Shown here: positions 10,480 through 27,542 of the stretch, in pieces
Layout: the number at the start of each line of letters is the position of its first letter
Position numbering within the stretch: the stretch's first letter is position 1
IMG/VR virus record: IMGVR_UViG_3300028082_000004
Location: 1 to 36,189 of that record
Source of the DNA: a virus
Direction: 5' to 3' (one strand)
DNA: 36,189 bases
The notes under the pieces: model-generated
What the model was told of the DNA's origin: nothing
The model's database searches: none
The model's input: only the letters and a program-made list of their open reading frames with translations
Position numbers and translations under genes: made by a program

Positions 10480-11484
10480 ATGGTAAACATGCCCTGGTTC
10501 CGCCTCTTCAACGAAATGCCCAACGATCCGAAATGGCGAGTAATCGCCCGTAAGTCGGGGCGCACTATCGCTGAGGTTCAGGCGGTCTACCTGCAGCTTC
10601 TGTCGTCGGCCAGCGCGAATGCAGATCGCGGAACCGCCAGCATCAGCAGCGAAGATATTGCCGCCGCATTGGACATTGAAATTGAAAACGTGGATAGCAT
10701 TCGCGAGGCAATGCAGGGACGAGTCTTAGAGGGTGACGAGGTGACTGGGTGGCGCAAGCGCAATCCGGCGCGAGAAGACGACAGCGCAGAACGCACGCGT
10801 GAATACCGCAAGCGCAAACAATATGTGACGCAATGTGACGCAGAGCAAAAACATGTGACGCAATGTGACGCTAGAGGAGAGGAGAGAAGAGAAGAATTAA
10901 GTACTTCCCCCTCTCGCGTGCGCGAGGCCGAGCGGCCATTTCCGGCCACCGGCCAAGACCCCGACGCTGGTGCGGAGCTCACGCTCGCCGCAGCGCTCTT
11001 CGACGAACTGGCCGTCCCGAGCGACTTCGGCACCCGCGATGTCGCAGCCGACGCCATTCGGCAGCACGCCAAGGCCACTGGCGGCGTCAAGCAGGCCTTC
11101 GAGCAGATCCTTGCAGCGGCTAGGTCCGCGAAGATCCGCGGTGAAACGATCAACCGCTTCTGGTTCACCGACCAGCGCTACAACCCAGCCGCGCAGGAGG
11201 GCGGTACGCATGGAAACAGTCAGCGAGGCGCAGCTCATGAGCGCGTTACAGCCAGCAAACGAGCTCTCGACCAGGCGCTTGCCAAACGCGGAATCGATTC
11301 GTCTGGCGGTGATGCTGGGCCAGATGGCGGACCGGTACCCGCACCAGGACCTGGCGGATTCGATGGAGGGCTACCTGTGGGACTTCGAGCAGTTGGCTAT
11401 GCGGTACTCGATGGCCGAGGTGGCACAGGCGTTGGCGGAATGGCGCATCACACCGGAGGCACGGTTCTTCCCGCGACCGGATGA
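10480..11484 (+). CDS. Phage replication initiator-like protein (winged helix), contains candidate origin
   Basis: The N terminus (MPWFRLFNEMPNDPKWRVIARKSGRTIAEVQAVYLQLL) and following ISSEDIAAALDIE segment resemble the DNA-binding front part of phage replication organiser proteins, followed by a basic RTREYRKRK segment. The middle encodes a duplicated VTQCDA peptide because the DNA carries iterons (10823-10871). A second helical domain follows (about 165-240). After about residue 244 the frame becomes Gly/Pro-rich and overlaps the next gene by 275 bases, so the open frame beyond that may be partly fortuitous or the real end may differ. Function is inferred from domain style and the origin-like repeats, as in lambda O. 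Confidence 0.65.
   Translation: MVNMPWFRLFNEMPNDPKWRVIARKSGRTIAEVQAVYLQLLSSASANADRGTASISSEDIAAALDIEIENVDSIREAMQGRVLEGDEVTGWRKRNPAREDDSAERTREYRKRKQYVTQCDAEQKHVTQCDARGEERREELSTSPSRVREAERPFPATGQDPDAGAELTLAAALFDELAVPSDFGTRDVAADAIRQHAKATGGVKQAFEQILAAARSAKIRGETINRFWFTDQRYNPAAQEGGTHGNSQRGAAHERVTASKRALDQALAKRGIDSSGGDAGPDGGPVPAPGPGGFDGGLPVGLRAVGYAVLDGRGGTGVGGMAHHTGGTVLPATG
10823..10896 (+). repeat. Four 10-bp-phased iterons plus purine tract: candidate replication origin
   Basis: Four copies of ATGTGACGC begin at 10823, 10833, 10853 and 10863, so all start on the same helical face with spacings of 10, 20 and 10. They form two tandem pairs in a 30-base unit, which keeps the reading frame and duplicates the VTQCDA peptide. 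An uninterrupted 24-base purine tract follows (10873-10896), then AATTAAG. Iterons followed by a strand-asymmetric easily melted segment inside the initiator gene is the arrangement of the lambda origin. Confidence 0.6.
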
Positions 11485-11695
11485 GATCGCCACGACCATC
11501 TGCACGCGGCGCAACGAGTGCGCCCGGCAGGCTGAGGCTGACGCAAGAGAGCGCCGCCGGCAGACTGAGCGAGAACGGCGCATTCAGAGATTTTGGCGTG
11601 ACATTTTGCCGGACCGGATGGCGCGGTTCGGATGGACCGAAGAAGAAACACTTACCCGCTTTCCAGAGTTTTGCGGAACGAAACCACGGAGATAG
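11210..11695 (+). CDS. Conserved phage early protein, unknown function
   Basis: This 161-residue protein starts at ATG 11210 behind a GGAGGGCGG ribosome site. It carries SMEGYLWDFEQLAMRYSMAEVAQALAEWRITPEARFFPRPDEIATT, a pattern I have seen in phage replication modules, followed by an Arg/Glu-rich coiled coil and a C-terminal WRDILPDRMARFGW segment. Its first 275 bases overlap the previous open frame; the protein-like character of this frame makes it the better gene in the overlap. A role helping replication, for example as a helicase-loader partner, is only a guess. Confidence 0.7.
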   Translation: METVSEAQLMSALQPANELSTRRLPNAESIRLAVMLGQMADRYPHQDLADSMEGYLWDFEQLAMRYSMAEVAQALAEWRITPEARFFPRPDEIATTICTRRNECARQAEADARERRRQTERERRIQRFWRDILPDRMARFGWTEEETLTRFPEFCGTKPRR

Positions 11696-15834: not shown

Positions 15835-16302
15835 ATGCAGAAACTCACAGGGGCAAAGCTCTCGAAGAAGGACAAGATCGTCAAGGCGCTCGGACTGCGG
15901 ACAGGCGGCGCGAGCTACAGCTCTATCGGTGATGTCCTCGGTATCTCGAAGACGCGAGCTTATGAGCTGGTCATGGAAGGTCTTGAGCAGATCGAGAAGC
16001 AGACACACGAGACGGCCGAGAAGGTGCGCGGTCTGGAGCTGGGGCGACTCGACGGCATCATCCTGTCGCACTGGCAGACGCGCGGCAACTGGAAGAGCGC
16101 CGAGGTTATCATCCGCGCCGGTGAGCGCCGCGCCAAGCTGCTCGGGCTGGACGCGCCGCAGAAAGTCGCCGAGACGGACCCGAACGGCGCTGCTCTGCTG
16201 CCCGCGCTGAACCTGGGTCTGCTCACGGATGCCGAGCTGAAGGAGATGGAGCGGATGTACGAGAAGGCTGGGGCGGTCCCGGCAGAAGGTGAGGCAAAGT
16301 GA
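15835..16302 (+). CDS. Terminase small subunit-like protein
   Basis: This 155-residue protein has an N-terminal helix-turn-helix (LGLRTGGASYSSIGDVLGISKTRAYELVMEGLEQI), a helical oligomerisation region, and a C-terminal segment rich in Leu/Ala that could contact the large subunit. Small terminase subunits bind phage DNA at the pac or cos site and feed it to the large subunit. Position just upstream of the large subunit supports the call. Sequence identity in this family is always low. Confidence 0.72.
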   Translation: MQKLTGAKLSKKDKIVKALGLRTGGASYSSIGDVLGISKTRAYELVMEGLEQIEKQTHETAEKVRGLELGRLDGIILSHWQTRGNWKSAEVIIRAGERRAKLLGLDAPQKVAETDPNGAALLPALNLGLLTDAELKEMERMYEKAGAVPAEGEAK

Positions 16303-16580
16303 TCTACGCACAGTGCAAGTGTGGAAACCTGAAGAGCTGGTCGAGCATGGGAATTGCCTCGTGCGAAGTCTGCGAAAAGTGTGGCTCAACCCTTGGAACT
16401 GGCCCCGATTCGCACCCGGAGCCTACTGCGCATGAAGTCTACGCGTCGCTTAACCATGGCGTTATCCGCGCTACATGTTGCCGTTGCCATCGCGAAAGGC
16501 CTCTCGGCGAAGCAAAGAACCTGCTCGCGCTCGGCGAAGAGCTGGAGGCATATCGGAAAGCTCTCATAGCCGTTGCCTGA
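16299..16580 (+). CDS. Zinc-ribbon phage protein between terminase genes
   Basis: A GTG start at 16299 overlaps the preceding stop (GTGA). The 93-residue product has three Cys clusters, CKCGN, CEVCEKCGS and CCRCHRE, enough to bind one or two zinc ions. Zinc-ribbon proteins of this type often sit directly before the large terminase gene. Function unknown; a DNA-packaging accessory is possible. It overlaps the terminase start by 8 bases. Confidence 0.65.
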   Translation: MIYAQCKCGNLKSWSSMGIASCEVCEKCGSTLGTGPDSHPEPTAHEVYASLNHGVIRATCCRCHRERPLGEAKNLLALGEELEAYRKALIAVA

Positions 16581-18240: not shown

Positions 18241-18411
18241 ATGTTTGGTAAAGAGCCACGCCTGACCGTACCGCCTGACGTTGCCGCATCGCTCGACCTC
18301 TACGCCGCAAAGCTGTCGGCCAGCCTCAATATGCCGGTCACGCGGCAGCAAGCATTCGAGCGCATGGTGCGCCTCTTTGGCCCCAAGGAGGGCGCGACGA
18401 ATGGCCAGTAA
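18241..18411 (+). CDS. Small protein upstream of the portal
   Basis: This 56-residue frame reads MFGKEPRLTVPPDVAASLDLYAAKLSASLNMPVTRQQAFERMVRLFGPKEG. It starts at ATG 18241, has no overlap with terminase, and ends inside the portal start (shared bases 18401-18411), typical of coupled phage genes. The composition is normal coding sequence and helical. No family was recognised. It is too short to be found by length alone. Confidence 0.6.
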   Translation: MFGKEPRLTVPPDVAASLDLYAAKLSASLNMPVTRQQAFERMVRLFGPKEGATNGQ

Positions 18412-19570
18412 GCTATCGATCAGCACCGTGGGCGCGCTTGCTGGCGCAAAGCTCCTTCCGATTGAGATGGACATGCTGGCCCAGGCCACCGGCCAAAAGC
18501 AGCAGTTCACCGGCGGTTGGTTCGGCCCAGGCGAGCCGATGCAAACGCAAGGGCCGGCCGACGAGAAGGGCCGTCAGTTCGATTACTCGACGCTGATCAA
18601 TACCGGCCCGCGCCCGCGTGGCGAGGCTGGCGAGGATGCAATCGACTTCGAGACGTTGCGCCGACTGGCAGAACCGTCGCGCGGCGGCCTCGATCTGCTG
18701 CGCGGTGCGATCGAGACCTGCAAGGACCAGATGGCTGCGCAGAAGTGGACCATCAAGGGCAGGGACGGCAAAGACGGCGGCGACGAGGCCAAGCGTATCG
18801 CGGATCTACTTGAGCAGCCGGACGGCGTCAATGACTTCCAGACGTGGCAGCGCATGATTCTGGAGGATCACTACGTCATTGACCAGGTCTGCATCTTCCC
18901 GCGTAAGACCACGAAAGGCTATTTCCTCCCCCAGATCGTCGACGGCGGCAGGATCAAGCGCATCGTCGGCGAAGATGGCCGCGTGCCGCTGCCGCCGTTT
19001 CCCGCCTACCAACACCACATGCACGGCATGGCCGCATGGGACTACACAGCCGACGAGCTGATCGTGCGCAGCTACAACATGCGTTCGAACCGTATCTATG
19101 CGCTTGGCCCGGTCGAGCAGTCCGTGAATATCATCAACTTGGCACTGCGCCGGATGCTGCACCAGACCGAGTACTACACGTCTGGTTCGATCCCCGACGC
19201 GATTCTTGAGGCGGCTCCCGGCCTGAGCCCTGACCAGGTGAAAGACTTCCAGAACTGGTGGGATGCTTTGCTGGTAGGCCAGACAGCCATGCGGCGTCAT
19301 GGAATCTGGGTGCCTGCCGGTACGAAGGTGCAAAGCCCAAAGCAGGAAGACCTTACAGGCGCGGTCGATGAGTGGCTGGCGCGCTTGATCTGCTGGATCT
19401 TCAGTGTCGCGCCACAAGCCCTCATCAAGCAGCAGAATCGCGCCACGGCGCAGACTGCCAAGGAGACGGCAGAGCAGGAAGGCATCGAGCCACGCAAGCT
19501 CTGGTTTCAGGGCTTCATGAACACCGTCATTCGCCGCTGCTATGGCGCAAAAATTTCCGCGTTTGCGTAG
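18401..19570 (+). CDS. Portal protein, reading frame ends at an amber codon
   Basis: This 389-residue product starts at ATG 18401 (MASKLSISTVGAL), which overlaps the small gene before it. Sequence features such as FETLRRLAEPSRGGLDLLRGAIETCKDQ, ALGPVEQSVNIINLALRRM and EDLTGAVDEWLARLICWIFSVAP are those of HK97/SPP1-like portals, the dodecameric ring at the head vertex through which DNA passes. The frame stops at TAG (19568-19570), where many portals have a Trp in the FAWRDEE.DP region. Reading the TAG as a sense codon continues in the same frame into the next entry. The portal C terminus thus appears cut by a single nonsense codon. Confidence 0.85.
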   Translation: MASKLSISTVGALAGAKLLPIEMDMLAQATGQKQQFTGGWFGPGEPMQTQGPADEKGRQFDYSTLINTGPRPRGEAGEDAIDFETLRRLAEPSRGGLDLLRGAIETCKDQMAAQKWTIKGRDGKDGGDEAKRIADLLEQPDGVNDFQTWQRMILEDHYVIDQVCIFPRKTTKGYFLPQIVDGGRIKRIVGEDGRVPLPPFPAYQHHMHGMAAWDYTADELIVRSYNMRSNRIYALGPVEQSVNIINLALRRMLHQTEYYTSGSIPDAILEAAPGLSPDQVKDFQNWWDALLVGQTAMRRHGIWVPAGTKVQSPKQEDLTGAVDEWLARLICWIFSVAPQALIKQQNRATAQTAKETAEQEGIEPRKLWFQGFMNTVIRRCYGAKISAFA

Positions 19571-20680
19571 CGAGACGAAGAGATCACCGACCCGAAGACG
19601 AAAGCCGAGGTCTTTCAGATCATGCTCGGCGGCACTACGGGGACCGGAAGGGCGTGGATGACGCCCGATGAAGCTCGGCAGCAGGGGTATGGCATGGACC
19701 CGCTGACGGATGAGCAGAAGGAAGAGCTCAATCCGCCCGCGCCGGTTCCGCCCATGCTGTCCACAGGTCCGGAGGGCACCACACTGCCCGACGGAAAACC
19801 GGGGGCCGAAGGATTGGCCTCCTCTCAGAAGCCCCCGGCGAAAAAGCCCACGACCGTACCAGCGGCCGGACAGAAGAAGTCAAAAGGCTTGACGGTTCAA
19901 AAAAAAAAGAATGTGGTGACGCCCATCGACCGGGACCGGCCTTCGGTTACTGAGGCTGTCGCGGCAATTCGCGCAACCATGCTGGCGCACTTCGGCCAAC
20001 AGAAGAAGGCGGCGCTTGCGGCTGTGGGCAGTGTATCGAAGGCCGACGGCCCCTTCGATGTGCTATCCAGCGACGACCAACTCAAGAAGTTGCAGAAGAA
20101 GCTACAGGAGCAGATCGACAAAATGGCCCAGGATGGCGCGCAGGCTGGTCTCTATCAGGTCGCGCATCTGATCATGCCGTCTGACGACGATGTCGACGAG
20201 GCGCTCGATAAGATGCTCTCACAGGCCAACGATAAGGCGGTCGAATACGCCAAGAGTCGCGCGGCCGAGTTGGTGACGCAGGTCGATGACACGACGCGCG
20301 ACCGCCTGCGCACGTTGACGGCCCGGGCGGAAGAAGAGGGCTGGAGTAACGACCAACTGGCCGACGAGATCGAGGCCTTTAGCGGCTTCAGTGCCGACCG
20401 CGCTGAGATGATAGCGCGCACGGAAACTGCATTCGCGGACGTTCAAGGTAACTTGGCCGGATGGCAGGAGTCCGGCGTGGTCAAGGGCAAGCGCTGGCTG
20501 GTGGGCGCAGGATGCTGCGAGGACTGCGAAAAGCTCGATGGCCAGGTGGTTGCGCTCGACGAGCAATTCGAGCCGGAGGACGACGCCCCAATCGACGGAC
20601 CACCTTATCACCCAAATTGCCGCTGCGACGTGGCGCCGGGCGTGATGACCGACGAAGAGCTTGATGAAGGAGACGAATAA
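19571..20680 (+). CDS. Continuation of portal frame: MuF-type head morphogenesis domain
   Basis: In frame with the portal, the codons after the amber read RDEEITDPKTKAEVFQIMLGG, then TPDEARQQGYGMDPLTDEQKEELNPP, which is the usual portal C-terminal end. A Pro/Lys linker follows (with a run of ten A at 19899-19908) and then a MuF-like domain with MIARTETAFADVQ, CCEDCEKLDGQVV and HPNCRC. MuF proteins are minor head proteins often made near or fused to portals. If the amber is not read through, the first usable start is ATG 19622, giving a 352-residue protein lacking a proper portal end. Total fused length would be 759 residues. Confidence 0.75.
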   Translation, partial: RDEEITDPKTKAEVFQIMLGGTTGTGRAWMTPDEARQQGYGMDPLTDEQKEELNPPAPVPPMLSTGPEGTTLPDGKPGAEGLASSQKPPAKKPTTVPAAGQKKSKGLTVQKKKNVVTPIDRDRPSVTEAVAAIRATMLAHFGQQKKAALAAVGSVSKADGPFDVLSSDDQLKKLQKKLQEQIDKMAQDGAQAGLYQVAHLIMPSDDDVDEALDKMLSQANDKAVEYAKSRAAELVTQVDDTTRDRLRTLTARAEEEGWSNDQLADEIEAFSGFSADRAEMIARTETAFADVQGNLAGWQESGVVKGKRWLVGAGCCEDCEKLDGQVVALDEQFEPEDDAPIDGPPYHPNCRCDVAPGVMTDEELDEGDE

Positions 20681-20681
20681 C

Positions 20682-20888
20682 ATGCAATTTTATGCGGATG
20701 GAAGTTGCCCTCTTCACGGCTGCGAGCAGCGCGGCCACACTGTTTGTGAGAAGGCGAAAGACTGGATCGACCGGCTTGTCGCGCAGGCCGACGCGGTACT
20801 CGCCAACGCCAAGAACGTCATCGACGCCGATCAGGCCGCCGAGCTGAAAGCCACCCTCATCGAAGAGCACAGAACGCAGGCCGGATAA
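20682..20888 (+). CDS. Small Cys-rich phage protein
   Basis: ATG 20682 follows an AGGAG site and gives 68 residues beginning MQFYADGSCPLHGCEQRGHTVCEKAKDWIDRL; two earlier in-frame ATGs at 20661 and 20664 overlap the MuF gene. CPLHGCEQRGHTVC could bind zinc, followed by a long helix. It is the last gene before a terminator. No function known. Confidence 0.55.
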   Translation: MQFYADGSCPLHGCEQRGHTVCEKAKDWIDRLVAQADAVLANAKNVIDADQAAELKATLIEEHRTQAG

Positions 20889-20975
20889 TGCCGTTTCGAC
20901 CTCGGGCGTGAGGTTGCAATCTTTCCGCTTCGCACTACACTGTCCCTGTCACTCATTCTCGTTTGGTGCTTACAT

Positions 20976-21007
20976 GGCCTCCGTTCTCATGCGGAGGCCT
21001 TCTTTTT
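20976..21007 (+). terminator. Rho-independent terminator between portal and capsid operons
   Basis: GGCCTCCG (20976-20983) pairs perfectly with CGGAGGCC (20992-20999) over an 8-base loop, followed by TTCTTTTT. It separates the terminase-portal transcript from protease-capsid. Between 20889 and 21133 no gene is convincing. A TTGACA (21053-21058) is present but lacks a good -10 partner. Confidence 0.8.
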
Positions 21008-21133
21008 GCCCGCACCAGCTTACCTTTTTTCGAAAATGCCTTTTCAACCTCCTTGACAGCGCTTTTTTGATTTGCGCCGGTCTTACGCTTGCCTCTGAAC
21101 AGCCACGAAGTGTGGCCAAAGGAGAGAAGCGGC

Positions 21134-22321
21134 ATGGCGAAGTTCCGCTTGTTTGGCGAGATCAGCAAGGTCGACGAGCAGCCCGACGGCACGCTCCTTG
21201 TCTACGGCGTGGCCTCTACGCCGGCCAAGGACTCTGACGGCGAAGTCATCACGGCCGAAGCAATGAAGGGCGCAATCCCCGAGTACATGGAGAAGCGCCG
21301 CGCCGTGCGTGAGATGCACCAGTCGATCGCTGCGGGCGTTACCAAGGCCCTGACGGTGGACGACGACGGTAAGACTCACATTATCGCGCACATTGTCGAT
21401 CCGGTCACCGTGAAGAAAGTCCAGACCGGCGTACTCAAGCAGTGGTCCGTGGGCGGCAAAGCCATCAAGCGTGACCCCCAGGACCTCAGTAAGATCGACA
21501 AGCTCTGGTTGCGCGAAGTGTCTCTTGTTGACATCGGTGCAAATGGTGGTTCCGATGTCGAAGGGTTCGAGGTCTGCAAGCTCGATGGAGATCCTGATGC
21601 GGCTATCGTACTTAGCACGTCGGCCGTTGACGAGCTGAAGAAGTATGACGGTTGCGAGGCCTACGACGCACAGACGGCGATTAACTGCATCACCAGTCTT
21701 CAGGGATTGCTCAACGTCGAATCCGGCGAAGACGAGCCGCCCGAGCAGGCCGAGGCCATCAAGGCGGCGCTTGAAAAGCTGAAGCAGTTTGTTGCCTCCG
21801 AGATCCTCGAGAAGCCCACTGACGAAGCTGCGAAGGCCGCAAAGGCATCTGGTGGCGCGGACGAACTCGCCAAGGCTGGTGCGACGCACTCGGCCGAGAC
21901 CAAGAAAAAGCTTAAGGAAGCCGCCGACCATCTCAAGGCCGCGCATGACAGTCTCTCCGGCATGATCGGCGACGACGGCGCTAGCGACGGCGACACGAAG
22001 AAGGTCGACAGTGGCGCGCAGACGGAAGATGCCATCGCAAAGGTGGCCGGTTTGACGGATGAGCTGACCAAGGCACAGACCGAGCTTACTTCGACCAAGA
22101 CCGAACGCGACGAGCTGAAGGGAGAACTCGCGAAGGCCGAAGGCGCAGCCAAAGTTTTCAAGGATGAGCTCTTCAAACGCGGCGTGCTGAAGGCCGTCGA
22201 CAAGGGCACGGACGGTGCCGGCATCGAAAAGGCGCAGACGGACGAGGGGGCCAACACCAAAGACCCGCTTGAGCTGGTCAAGGTTGCCCAGCGCAACGGA
22301 GTCATAATCCCTCGCCGCTAA
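21134..22321 (+). CDS. Prohead protease (XkdF-like) with scaffold-like C terminus
   Basis: This 395-residue protein starts at ATG 21134 behind AAGGAG. Residues about 1-135 have the XkdF-type phage protease layout (VYGVASTPAKDSDGEVITAEAMK, AVREMHQSIAAGV, LKQWSVGGKAIKRD), with a candidate His and Ser from the MHQ and SVGG segments. The C-terminal half (about 200-370) is an acidic, Ala/Lys/Glu-rich coiled coil, as expected for a scaffold that is digested during maturation, and the last 30 residues resemble a capsid-binding tail. It directly precedes the major capsid gene, the normal place for a protease-scaffold fusion. Confidence 0.8.
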   Translation: MAKFRLFGEISKVDEQPDGTLLVYGVASTPAKDSDGEVITAEAMKGAIPEYMEKRRAVREMHQSIAAGVTKALTVDDDGKTHIIAHIVDPVTVKKVQTGVLKQWSVGGKAIKRDPQDLSKIDKLWLREVSLVDIGANGGSDVEGFEVCKLDGDPDAAIVLSTSAVDELKKYDGCEAYDAQTAINCITSLQGLLNVESGEDEPPEQAEAIKAALEKLKQFVASEILEKPTDEAAKAAKASGGADELAKAGATHSAETKKKLKEAADHLKAAHDSLSGMIGDDGASDGDTKKVDSGAQTEDAIAKVAGLTDELTKAQTELTSTKTERDELKGELAKAEGAAKVFKDELFKRGVLKAVDKGTDGAGIEKAQTDEGANTKDPLELVKVAQRNGVIIPRR

Positions 22322-22360
22322 GCGAGGCAGTAGCAGCACATGAAAGGGAGGCTCATTTTT

Positions 22361-23833
22361 ATGAGCGTTGTTGACACTTTGGACGAAGTAAAGAAGGCGC
22401 TTTCCTCGCGGGCGCCGGACGACATTCAGAAGGCGATCACGCAGGGCACTGGCCTCGTTGCCTACGACCTGCAAGCACCCGCCAAGAACGTGTACCCGAT
22501 CACCACGCCGATCCGCAATAAGGTCCCGCGCGTGGGTGGTGGCACCGGCACGGCGACCAACTGGAAGGTGGTCTCGGCGATCATCGGCTCGGGTTTCAGT
22601 TCGATGCCGTGGGTGCCGGAAGGCCAGCGCTCGGCCGCCATGAGCTACGTGACTGCGAACAAGGCAGCCAGCTACGTGACGCTGGGCGAGGAAGACTACA
22701 TCACCCGCGAGGCAATCAACGCCGCCAAAAACTTCGAAGACGCCAAGGCTCGCATGGTCATGCGCTTGCTTCAGAAGACCATGGACAAGGAAGAGTCGGC
22801 TATTTTGTTTGGCAACAACTCGCTAGCTCTCGGTACTACGCCGACGCCGACACTGACGGCCTCCGGTACGAGCGGCACGTTGGCTGCGGCCACCTACTAC
22901 ATCGCCGCCGTGGCCATCACCTACGAGGGCTATCAGCAGCAGAGCTCCATAGCTGGTCTTGCACAGACCAAAACCATCACTGGCATGGACGGGCAGACCT
23001 TCACGCTGAACGGTGGCACGGCCGCACCGAGCGCACAGGCGTCCTTGGCTGTCACTGCTGGTCAGTCACTTACTGCGACGGTCACGCCGGTGCGCGGCGC
23101 GGGCGCGTATGCGTGGTATGCGGGTTCCAGCGCCGCGACCGCGTGCCTCCAGGGCATCACCACGACCAACACGATTTCGTTCTCCGCGCAGCTCTCGACC
23201 GGAACACAGTTGTCGACGGCTCTTACCGCTACCGACAACTCGACGAACTCTCTGGCCTTCGATGGTTTGTTCGCCGCCGGCCTGAACTCCTCGAGCGGTG
23301 CGTACTACAACCCCCTCGGTGCGCAGTTGACCTCTGGCGGAAATGGCAACGTCAACGAGATCGATGCAATGCTGCTGGCCATGTGGAACCAGTACCAGGT
23401 GTCGCCGACCGTGCTGTATGTCAATGCGCAGCAGGCCAAGGACGTCAAGAACAAGGTGCTCAACGGATCGAGCGCGCCCCTGCTTCGCTATACGCAGAAC
23501 GGCACGTCCGATCAGGCCTTCGGCATCGTGGCCAACGGGTCTATCAAGAGCTACTTCAACCCGTTTGCACTTGATGGCGGCATGGAAATCCCGATCAAGA
23601 TCCATCCGAAGCTGCCGGCTGGTGCAATCCTGGGCTACTGCGACAACCTGCCGGTGCAGTACCAGAGCACTGAGGTTCCCAACCTGATCGAGATGAAGAC
23701 GCGCGCCGACTACTACCAGATCGATTGGCCGATGCGCACCCGTCGCGAGGAAGTTGGCGTCTACGCCGAAGAAGTTCCGGCGATCTATGCGCCGTTCGCG
23801 TTGGGCTTCATAACCAACATCTACGCGGGATAA
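22361..23833 (+). CDS. Major capsid protein (HK97-type) with an inserted beta-rich domain
   Basis: This 490-residue protein starts at ATG 22361 after a strong AAAGGGAGG site. The N-terminal arm and the MPWVPEG..SAAMSYVTANKAASYVTLGEEDYITREA segment, then helical spine and C-terminal EIPIKIHPKLPAGAILGYCDNLPVQY and EVGVYAEEVPAIYAPFALGFITNIYAG fit an HK97-fold capsid. Residues about 158-300 are Thr/Ser/Gly/Ala-rich and beta-like (YYIAAVAITYEGYQQQSS, GAYAWYAGSS) and probably form an exposed inserted domain. The protein would assemble the head after cleavage by the upstream protease. Upstream of the insertion the protein is rather unvarying in character. Confidence 0.82.
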   Translation: MSVVDTLDEVKKALSSRAPDDIQKAITQGTGLVAYDLQAPAKNVYPITTPIRNKVPRVGGGTGTATNWKVVSAIIGSGFSSMPWVPEGQRSAAMSYVTANKAASYVTLGEEDYITREAINAAKNFEDAKARMVMRLLQKTMDKEESAILFGNNSLALGTTPTPTLTASGTSGTLAAATYYIAAVAITYEGYQQQSSIAGLAQTKTITGMDGQTFTLNGGTAAPSAQASLAVTAGQSLTATVTPVRGAGAYAWYAGSSAATACLQGITTTNTISFSAQLSTGTQLSTALTATDNSTNSLAFDGLFAAGLNSSSGAYYNPLGAQLTSGGNGNVNEIDAMLLAMWNQYQVSPTVLYVNAQQAKDVKNKVLNGSSAPLLRYTQNGTSDQAFGIVANGSIKSYFNPFALDGGMEIPIKIHPKLPAGAILGYCDNLPVQYQSTEVPNLIEMKTRADYYQIDWPMRTRREEVGVYAEEVPAIYAPFALGFITNIYAG

Positions 23834-23852
23834 ATTCCGCGAGATAACTCAT

Positions 23853-23875
23853 GGAGCGGCCATCCTGACCGCTCC
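23853..23875 (+). other. Hairpin after the capsid gene
   Basis: GGAGCGG (23853-23859) pairs with CCGCTCC (23869-23875) around a 9-base loop. There is no T-run, so it is not a standard terminator; it may stabilise the abundant capsid mRNA 3' end. Confidence 0.5.
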
Positions 23876-23902
23876 CCTCAACCAAGTTCTACAGGAGAAA
23901 AG

Positions 23903-24163
23903 ATGAGCGTGAAAATCATCATCGAAGCTGAGTCCGTCGACGAACTGAAGAAGGACGTGCAGGAAGTTCTGGCTCTGACTCCGGGCGCCTTCGATCCGGC
24001 CAACGTGAATGCGCAGACGGCCACCGTTGCGAGTGCCGCTACCCCGGCCACCACGGTGACCTCTACCGACTCGACTTCGTTGACCTCGGACGCGGCATCC
24101 ACCACCACGGCTGCGACGACCTCGACCGATTCGGCCTCGACTACCGCGCCCACGGCGGCCTGA
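23903..24163 (+). CDS. Small Thr/Ser/Ala-rich protein after the capsid
   Basis: This 86-residue protein begins MSVKIIIEAESVDELKKDVQEVLALTPG, a beta-helix start, and then is almost entirely Thr, Ser and Ala (TDSTSLTSDAASTTTAATTSTDS). The low-complexity tail is encoded by near-repeats such as ACCTCGACCGATTCGG. The position next to the capsid suggests a small virion or decoration protein, but this is a guess. Confidence 0.5.
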   Translation: MSVKIIIEAESVDELKKDVQEVLALTPGAFDPANVNAQTATVASAATPATTVTSTDSTSLTSDAASTTTAATTSTDSASTTAPTAA

Positions 24164-24225
24164 CTACAAGCGGGGCCGGTAAACGCCGACCTCGCACAAC
24201 CTTCCACCGATGAGAGGAGTGGCCC

Positions 24226-24456
24226 ATGGCCAAGCTCTACCACAAGAACGCCACCGCGATCAGTTTTCAAGGTTCGATTATCGAGCCTGATGAAGACGGT
24301 GCTTTCGATGTTCCAGAAGAAGCCGGAAGCGAGCTGATGCATCCGACGCATGGATTCAGCGCCGAACCCATTGAAGCGGACCAGCCCAAGCGCCGCGGTC
24401 GAAAGTCGAAGACTGACGACGATGGCAACAACAACGAAGAAGACCCGAAGGAATAA
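24226..24456 (+). CDS. Small acidic phage protein
   Basis: This 76-residue protein starts at ATG 24226 behind a GAGAGGAG site. It begins MAKLYHKNATAISFQGSIIEPDEDGAFDVPEEAGSELMHPTHG, a beta-rich pattern, and ends in a mixed basic-acidic tail (KRRGRKSKTDDDGNNNEEDPKE). Short proteins like this lie between capsid and connector genes in many siphoviruses. Function unknown. Confidence 0.6.
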   Translation: MAKLYHKNATAISFQGSIIEPDEDGAFDVPEEAGSELMHPTHGFSAEPIEADQPKRRGRKSKTDDDGNNNEEDPKE

Positions 24457-24462
24457 GCGAAC

Positions 24463-25020
24463 ATGGCAGCTGGCGATCTGACAACTCTTGAAAACGTACA
24501 GGCGTGGGGCGGCGCGACTGTCTCCGGCAATGACGCCAAGACGCAGCTCGCCATCACGGCCTGCTCGGCGTGGATCGCCAGCTACCTGAACCGCAACATC
24601 CTCACCGCCACCTACACGCAGCGGCTCAACGGCAACGGTTCACAGATGCTGCTGGTGGACAACTATCCGGTCCAGTCTATCGCCGCGCTATCGATCAACG
24701 GTTTCGACGTAACCAAGTGGGCGACATGCGACGGGCGTCGTACTGTCTTGCTCGGACCGGACCAGAACAATATTCCATGTCCGTTCCGCTTTGAGCATGG
24801 CCTGGCCAATGTGTCGATCACCTATACGGCTGGATTCGACGCTACGCCTGCCGACCTGGAGTTAACCGTCATCCGGCTGGTGCAGTGGGCTATGGCGGAA
24901 AGCCAGCGGCCCGCGCAAAACTCCAAGTCGCTCGGCGGCGGTGAGACAGTCAGCTTCTCGACGGCCACCGCGCCGAAGTGGGCGCTCGACGATTTGCAAC
25001 AGTTCAAGAGGGCCGTGTAA
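24463..25020 (+). CDS. Head-tail connector protein (gp6-like)
   Basis: This 185-residue protein has the layout of head-tail connector proteins: a helical N terminus (LTTLENVQAWGG, AITACSAWIASYLNRNIL), a beta segment with VDNYPVQSIAALSINGFDV, VSITYTAGFDATPADLELTVIRLVQWAMAE, and a C-terminal helix. Such proteins form a ring under the portal. Its position after capsid and before gp10-type tail proteins matches. It ends in a TAATG overlap with the next gene. Confidence 0.72.
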   Translation: MAAGDLTTLENVQAWGGATVSGNDAKTQLAITACSAWIASYLNRNILTATYTQRLNGNGSQMLLVDNYPVQSIAALSINGFDVTKWATCDGRRTVLLGPDQNNIPCPFRFEHGLANVSITYTAGFDATPADLELTVIRLVQWAMAESQRPAQNSKSLGGGETVSFSTATAPKWALDDLQQFKRAV

Positions 25021-26953: not shown

Positions 26954-27009
26954 TCGAACCATGCCGGGGCCGCTGCGTGCGGCCCTGTGCATTCGGAGGA
27001 GGCTATCAG

Positions 27010-27294
27010 ATGGCAGCAAGCATCATTAAACTCGGTGGCGAGGAATACGCCCTTTCTGGTCTTACCGTGGGGCAACTGCGTGAGCACAGCTCCGAAGACA
27101 ACCAAGACAAGTCAGAGGAAGACAAGGCGCTCAGCTTGATCGAGATGAGCATCCGCCGCAAGCATCCCGCTTTCGATGGCGCGCTGCTCTATGAGCTGAC
27201 GCCGGGAGATTGCGAGGAGATTGCGCTCGAAATCGCGCGGCTGAGCAAGCTGCCGGGGGAAGCGACGGCCCGGCTCCGGGTGAAGAAGGCCTAG
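27010..27294 (+). CDS. Tail assembly chaperone, short form (G-like)
   Basis: This 94-residue protein starts at ATG 27010 after GGAGGAGG. Sequence AASIIKLGGEEYALSGLTVGQLREHS is a typical tail-chaperone start, then helical. Its position between tube and tape measure is that of lambda gpG. The gene ends at TAG 27292-27294, but a second frame (-1) stays open to 27542 and would extend it by programmed frameshifting, see the next entry. Confidence 0.8.
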   Translation: MAASIIKLGGEEYALSGLTVGQLREHSSEDNQDKSEEDKALSLIEMSIRRKHPAFDGALLYELTPGDCEEIALEIARLSKLPGEATARLRVKKA

Positions 27295-27542
27295 GCTGGG
27301 CAGACTTTTACGGATTGGTGATCACCGGGACCCACTGGACGGTCCAGCAGCTTGAAGCAACGGACTACGCCGTCGTGATGGATATCGTGAAGCACTGGGA
27401 AGAGTGGCCACCGATCCACATCCTTGCTCGTTCGTTCTTTGGGAACGAGGGCGGCAAGAAACGCAGAAGCACCAGCCGTGGGCGCGAGCTCACGCTTGAC
27501 GAACTAAAGGCTATCGCCGGAGAGTTCCGGCCAACCCCATAG
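27258..27542 (+). CDS. Tail chaperone extension (T-like), joined by -1 frameshift
   Basis: This frame lies -1 relative to the G-like gene and is open from well before its stop to TAG 27540-27542. It encodes GWADFYGLVITGTHWTVQQLEATDYAVVMDIVKHWEEWPPIHILARSFFG. It lacks a proper start of its own. A five-G run (27255-27259, CCG GGG GAA) sits before the overlap; slippage there would give a 177-residue GT-type fusion with a Gly/Pro linker. The site is not a classical heptamer, so the slip point is uncertain; other runs in the overlap are less convincing. Confidence 0.7.
   Translation, partial: GSDGPAPGEEGLGWADFYGLVITGTHWTVQQLEATDYAVVMDIVKHWEEWPPIHILARSFFGNEGGKKRRSTSRGRELTLDELKAIAGEFRPTP

What the first reader, a model, noticed from the sequence alone, without database searches (positions are those of the whole stretch)
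19568..19570. Amber codon splits a portal-MuF reading frame
After the portal stop TAG, the same frame stays open to 20680 and reads as the expected portal C terminus (RDEEITDP..., TPDEARQQGYGMDPLTDEQKEELNPP) followed by a MuF domain. The TAG sits where portals usually have a Trp (FAW). It is either a fresh nonsense mutation (TGG to TAG), an error, programmed readthrough, or a host or phage amber suppressor.
Basis: partly seen in the sequence, partly recalled or inferred. Interest (0 to 1): 0.7.

Follow-up and report, generated by a model that had tools for sequence, protein, structure and literature searches.

The report
Nonsense mutation in a phage portal gene
A single stop codon interrupts a phage gene that relatives keep open at this point and that often makes one joined portal-and-head protein; it is most simply a recent one-base nonsense change or a sequence error, and nothing found points to a special decoding trick.

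Summary
An in-frame TAG (19568-19570) interrupts a frame otherwise open from ATG 18401 to TAA 20678-20680: 389 codons of portal (PF04860), the TAG, then 369 codons with the rest of the portal and a MuF domain (PF04233). One portal-MuF family, phrog_2662, runs across the break. In 109 relatives (one locus per contig) none stops at this codon: 89 Trp, 10 Tyr, 7 Phe, 2 Asp, 1 Cys. The closest are unbroken fusions with TGG. In 40 of 104 relatives with closed frames the frame ends early, consistent with a separate MuF gene, but 45-208 codons further downstream. In the predicted fold the stop removes the portal's last three helices as well as MuF. Two collinear relatives show no other real in-frame stop in the genes compared. 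TAG ends five other genes just where relatives' genes end, the record has no tRNA, and no unusual RNA structure follows: no evidence for recoding or programmed readthrough. Best reading: a recent single-base nonsense allele in one temperate-phage genome; a consensus error is the main rival. A 99.94% identical contig starts 174 bases past the stop and cannot decide. Ordinary; low interest.

The parts
18385..18392 (+). ribosome-binding site AAGGAGGG of the portal gene
   Evidence: sequence
18401..19567 (+). portal protein, codons 1-389 (before the stop)
   Evidence: PF04860; phrog_2662 positions 31-359; portal fold, VIA-align Z up to 21 over model residues 54-461
19568..19570 (+). in-frame amber codon TAG, codon 390; Trp in 89 of 109 relatives, a stop in none
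19571..19735 (+). C-terminal end of the portal domain, about residues 391-445, with predicted helices 398-408, 422-430 and 437-443
   Evidence: model from the alignment A2 with TAG read as Trp; solved portals such as HK97 align to residue 437
19736..19939 (+). linker, about residues 446-513, mostly low confidence in the model
19940..20677 (+). MuF-containing region, about residues 514-759
   Evidence: PF04233 on P0002 residues 246-354; phrog_2662 and head morphogenesis families
20678..20680 (+). TAA that ends the whole frame
19622..19624 (+). first in-frame ATG after the stop (51 bases on), GAGG 11 bases upstream; possible weak restart; Met is not conserved here
19694..19696 (+). further in-frame ATG with AGGGG at 19683-19687, 6 bases upstream; possible restart
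   Evidence: read from the sequence; not tested

Best explanation
The gene is a fused portal-MuF gene of a temperate tailed phage that has taken a recent single-base nonsense change at a conserved Trp codon. Shown: the frame, the homology across it, the Trp in the closest relatives and the absence of any stop at this codon in relatives. Inferred: the change is in the sampled DNA and not only in the consensus; ribosomes stop at codon 390; the product lacks the last portal helices and MuF, so this copy is probably unable to make normal heads (a defective prophage, or one variant in a mixed population) unless the cell happens to suppress amber codons. The downstream part has not yet decayed, which fits a recent event.
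For: Closest relatives are unbroken at this codon with TGG: L005/L037 (one contig), L040, L038. In 109 relatives, one locus per contig, W 89, Y 10, F 7, D 2, C 1, stop 0; two further loci (L034, L036) are cut by contig ends before the site and were dropped. Eight more loci from genomes (L118-L124, L126) have Trp TGG, and the isolate Brevundimonas phage Polewnik has a 774-aa unbroken gene with TGG. In two collinear relatives the only in-frame stop in a correctly framed gene of the window is 19568. The predicted fold puts residue 390 at the end of strand 386-390 with three portal helices after it. TAG ends five other window genes (5740, 7968, 25508, 30206, 32410) within 0-7 residues of where the relatives' genes end.
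Against: No reads were available, so a consensus error is not excluded. The 369 codons after the stop carry no second lesion, which is also what readthrough or restart would give. The near-identical contig L004 does not reach the codon.
Confidence: 0.65

Rival explanations
1. Consensus or assembly error: the molecules sampled mostly have a sense codon and the TAG is a wrong base call or a rare variant chosen by the assembler.
For: One base separates TAG from the codon of the closest relatives. The only near-identical contig, L004, breaks 174 bases downstream, which can happen where strains differ; its three differences from the window (19754, 19768, 20238) all lie in this gene and none in the remaining 3,997 of 4,934 bases, so the stretch may be assembled from a mixture.
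Against: No other in-frame stop or frame break was found in the genes compared with two relatives, so the record is not error-rich. L004 agrees with the window at 99.94%.
Confidence: 0.2
2. Host or phage amber suppression, or lineage-specific readthrough: the stop is read as an amino acid at some rate, so both a 389-aa and a 759-aa protein are made.
For: The frame after the stop is intact for 369 codons. Tyr, which some known natural suppressors insert (recalled), is found at this position in 10 of 109 relatives.
Against: No tRNA or tmRNA gene in the record. TAG is the normal end of other genes. No relative has a stop here, so it is not a conserved programmed site. The RNA after the stop folds no better than shuffles (z 0.41). 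The host is unknown, so a host suppressor was not tested.
Confidence: 0.08
3. Functional split: the stop turns the fusion into two genes, a short portal and a MuF protein restarted at ATG 19622 or 19694, as in relatives with separate genes.
For: Relatives with early-ending frames are common: 40 of 104 closed frames end within 220 codons of the site. In-frame ATGs with purine-rich stretches upstream exist at 19622 and 19694. SPP1 gp7, a MuF protein, is a separate and dispensable virion component (passage read in PMC6316719).
Against: Where relatives' frames end early they end 45-208 codons downstream of this codon, never at it. The split here would cut off three predicted portal helices that other portals keep. 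Met at 19622 is not conserved. The upstream GAGG is 11 bases away, a poor spacing.
Confidence: 0.06

Closest known systems
Fused portal-MuF proteins, PHROG phrog_2662; isolates Brevundimonas phage vB_BpoS-Polewnik/Strzyga and Arthrobacter phage Sonali; Microbacterium phage clusters EA3, EA5, EA8 and EB
   Same: Portal domain, linker and MuF domain in one frame; Polewnik's gene is a 774-aa unbroken frame; Sonali's is annotated 'portal and MuF-like fusion protein'; Microbacterium fusions are described in PMC7302621 (passages read).
   Different: All of these are unbroken. The window copy has a stop at codon 390.
Separate portal and MuF genes (SPP1 gp6 and gp7 type)
   Same: Same two domains in the same order.
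   Different: Early-ending relatives end after the whole portal, 45-208 codons downstream; the window's stop lies inside the portal fold.
Phages that read TAG as an amino acid (translation table 15, Crassvirales and others; PMC11210395, passages read)
   Same: An in-frame TAG within a structural gene.
   Different: One gene only, TAG is a working terminator elsewhere in the same record, and there is no suppressor tRNA.

Membership tests
Fused portal-MuF protein (phrog_2662) | Portal domain | tested here: met
   PF04860 and phrog_2662 on P0001; portal structures, Z up to 21.3
Fused portal-MuF protein (phrog_2662) | MuF domain downstream in the same frame | tested here: met
   PF04233 and phrog_2662 positions 387-713 on P0002
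Fused portal-MuF protein (phrog_2662) | One uninterrupted open frame | tested here: not met
   TAG at codon 390; so a broken copy of the family and not an intact member
TAG-recoding phage (table 15) | In-frame TAG in many genes | tested here: not met
   Only the portal-MuF gene in the genes compared with two relatives
TAG-recoding phage (table 15) | TAG not used to end genes | tested here: not met
   TAG ends at least five genes where relatives' genes end
TAG-recoding phage (table 15) | Amber suppressor tRNA (present in about half of such phages in PMC11210395) | tested here: not met
   ARAGORN finds no tRNA in the record; the record may be a fragment and the host is unknown
Programmed stop-codon readthrough | Stop conserved among relatives | tested here: not met
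   0 of 109 relatives
Programmed stop-codon readthrough | Stimulatory RNA downstream | tested here: not met
   No structure beyond shuffles in 19560-19700, z 0.41; not every readthrough site needs one
Programmed stop-codon readthrough | Extended product detected | not testable with these tools
   needs proteomics or a reporter
Split portal and MuF genes | Portal complete before its stop | tested here: not met
   Three predicted portal helices lie after the stop; solved portals align to about residue 430-448

The most novel reading that the evidence does not exclude
The amber codon is kept on purpose in this lineage: partial suppression in its host gives a mix of a short portal without the C-terminal helices and MuF and a few full-length portal-MuF chains, so that only some of the twelve portal subunits carry a MuF domain.
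Probability: 0.04. Interest if true: 0.55.

Novelty: new member of a known kind. Interest (0 to 1): 0.15.

Why it matters
Little as it stands: it adds a portal-MuF fusion gene with a nonsense allele, and it is a useful caution that gene callers will report this contig as having a 389-429-aa portal and a separate MuF protein. If the stop proved to be read through, it would show a way to set the number of MuF domains per portal ring.

Tried and rejected
Recoding of TAG: rejected, because TAG ends other genes in step with relatives and no tRNA is present. Programmed readthrough: no conservation and no structure. A real gene boundary as in split relatives: position does not fit. General decay of the prophage: not supported; the main head, tail, recombination and lysogeny genes look whole; the in-frame stops other than 19568 fall in antisense frames or, at 16290, upstream of the start of the small gene 16299-16580 inside an overlapping gene.

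Searches that led nowhere: an exact pattern around the codon with the middle base free found no contig; a degenerate pattern for F-A-(W or stop)-R-D-E-E-I-T-D-P found only the contig of L005; near-identical prophages in 398 genomes of the family of G004 and 233 of the family of G005 were not found, best 46% identity; the nucleotide search of phages gave only short terminase matches; a literature search on premature stops and sequence errors in assembled viral genomes returned nothing, and one on portal crown truncation nothing of use.

Weak hint, not used: all three differences between window and L004 lie in the 937 bases of this gene that they share, out of 4,934 (about 0.007 by chance if evenly spread; two of the three lie within 25 bases of L004's contig end, where errors are common).

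Full report
What is there. The window is a virus record of 36,189 bases, G+C 58%, with an integrase, a CI-like repressor, a RecE-like exonuclease, a large terminase, head and tail genes, so a temperate tailed phage. The portal gene starts at ATG 18401 behind AAGGAGGG. Codon 390 is TAG at 19568-19570, and the frame continues for 369 codons to TAA at 20678-20680. The first piece is a portal by Pfam and the second holds a MuF domain. A single PHROG family, phrog_2662, matches the first piece at positions 31-359 and the second at 387-713 of 717, so the two pieces are halves of one protein.

Relatives. Searches of viral contigs and of bacterial and archaeal genomes gave 111 relatives, one locus per contig, apart from L004, which lacks the site. 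Two of these (L034, L036) are cut by a contig end before the site and were dropped. For each of the other 109 the best portal frame was aligned to the window protein and the residue at codon 390 read: Trp 89, Tyr 10, Phe 7, Asp 2, Cys 1, stop 0. Counting identical 22-residue surroundings once leaves 96: Trp 77, Tyr 10, Phe 7, Cys 1, Asp 1. The Asp and Cys rows are distant, and their alignment is unsure. The viral search kept only the best 80 of 377 relatives, so this is a sample that favours close and full-length ones. The four closest loci (L005 and L037 from one contig, L040, L038) are unbroken fusions with TGG at 55-60% identity. Eight further loci from genome searches, L118-L124 and L126, all have TGG; L117 and L125 repeat L006 and L012. 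Among isolates, Brevundimonas phage Polewnik has a 774-aa unbroken gene with TGG at the site; Arthrobacter phage Sonali also has an unbroken fusion, but its alignment at the site is unsure (an Arg falls there).

Split genes. Of the 104 frames that close within their locus, 64 run 220 or more codons past the site, as fusions do, and 40 end 45-208 codons past it. I take the second group as phages with a separate MuF gene, although I did not check each for one. So a split of portal and MuF is common, but not at this codon.

Structure. A model from 56 aligned sequences with the TAG read as Trp (mean pLDDT 82.8, pTM 0.52) shows a portal domain to about residue 445, a low-confidence linker to about 513, and a helical MuF region. 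Residue 390 ends strand 386-390. Helices 398-408, 422-430 and 437-443 follow it and belong to the portal: solved portals such as those of phage 812, HK97 and the GTA align to residues 434-461 of the model (Z 16-21), while some, such as lambda and T4, align only to about 393-425. A protein ending at 389 would therefore be a portal without its last helices. Whether such a form can still make rings was not tested.

Is it the only lesion? Frames from two collinear relatives (records of L040 and L037, fetched as L132-L135) were compared with the window. In genes read in the right frame, the only stop inside a match is 19568, seen with both relatives. Other stops fall in antisense frames, or at 16290 just upstream of the small gene 16299-16580.

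Is TAG a stop for this phage? Ten of the 31 gene ends tallied are TAG, the portal included. Five of the TAG-ended genes (ends 5740, 7968, 25508, 30206, 32410) finish within 0-7 residues of the ends of the relatives' frames. The record has no tRNA gene. The 141 bases around and after the stop fold no better than shuffled sequence (z 0.41). This speaks against recoding and against a structured readthrough site. A suppressor in the host cannot be judged: the host is unknown. The best match among the organisms' genomes searched is an Acidobacteriaceae MAG at 42-46% identity, too far to name a host.

Real or error? The only near-identical public contig found, L004 (IMGVR_UViG_3300047650_000005), covers window 19744-24677 with 3 differences in 4,934 bases and begins 174 bases after the TAG, so it gives no second reading. 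The clean state of the other genes argues against an error-rich record. A single wrong consensus base stays possible.

Mechanism and verdict. The simplest account is one base change at a conserved Trp codon that ends translation inside the portal. The gene would yield a 389-residue portal fragment (steps inferred), and the phage copy would be defective or a minority variant unless suppressed. Restart at ATG 19622 or 19694 could make some MuF protein (inferred). The MuF partner may not be essential: SPP1 gp7 is dispensable for assembly, though only about 25% of virions without it are infectious (PMC6316719, passage read). The lost portal helices are the more serious loss. Fusions of portal and MuF are known (PMC7302621, passages read; PMC5512222, passages read, mentions fusions of further domains to MuF or portal). 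The find is ordinary.

Noticed in passing
window 26977-27542 and 27552: Two overlapping ORFs (26977-27294 and 27210-27542) just before the tape measure gene look like a tail assembly chaperone pair that could be joined by frameshifting; the second shares the frame of the tape measure gene and ends in TAG ten bases before its GTG start.
   Followed up: no
window 10480-11695: ORF 10480-11484 matches replication initiation families only in its first 136 residues and overlaps another ORF (10970-11695, with an internal ATG near 11213) whose 11207-11686 part is conserved in a relative; the gene boundary is unclear.
   Followed up: partly
window 19754, 19768, 20238: All three differences from the near-identical contig L004 lie in the MuF part of this gene (two change the protein, one is silent), none in the other 3,997 shared bases; two are close to L004's end.
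   Followed up: partly
window 22340-23833: The likely major capsid protein matches phrog_13692, which has no function assigned, over its full length (10-490 of 491).
   Followed up: no
L073 4839-8090 and L104 972-3743: Portal frames that run on 673 and 515 codons past the site, much longer than usual; possible extra C-terminal domains on MuF.
   Followed up: no
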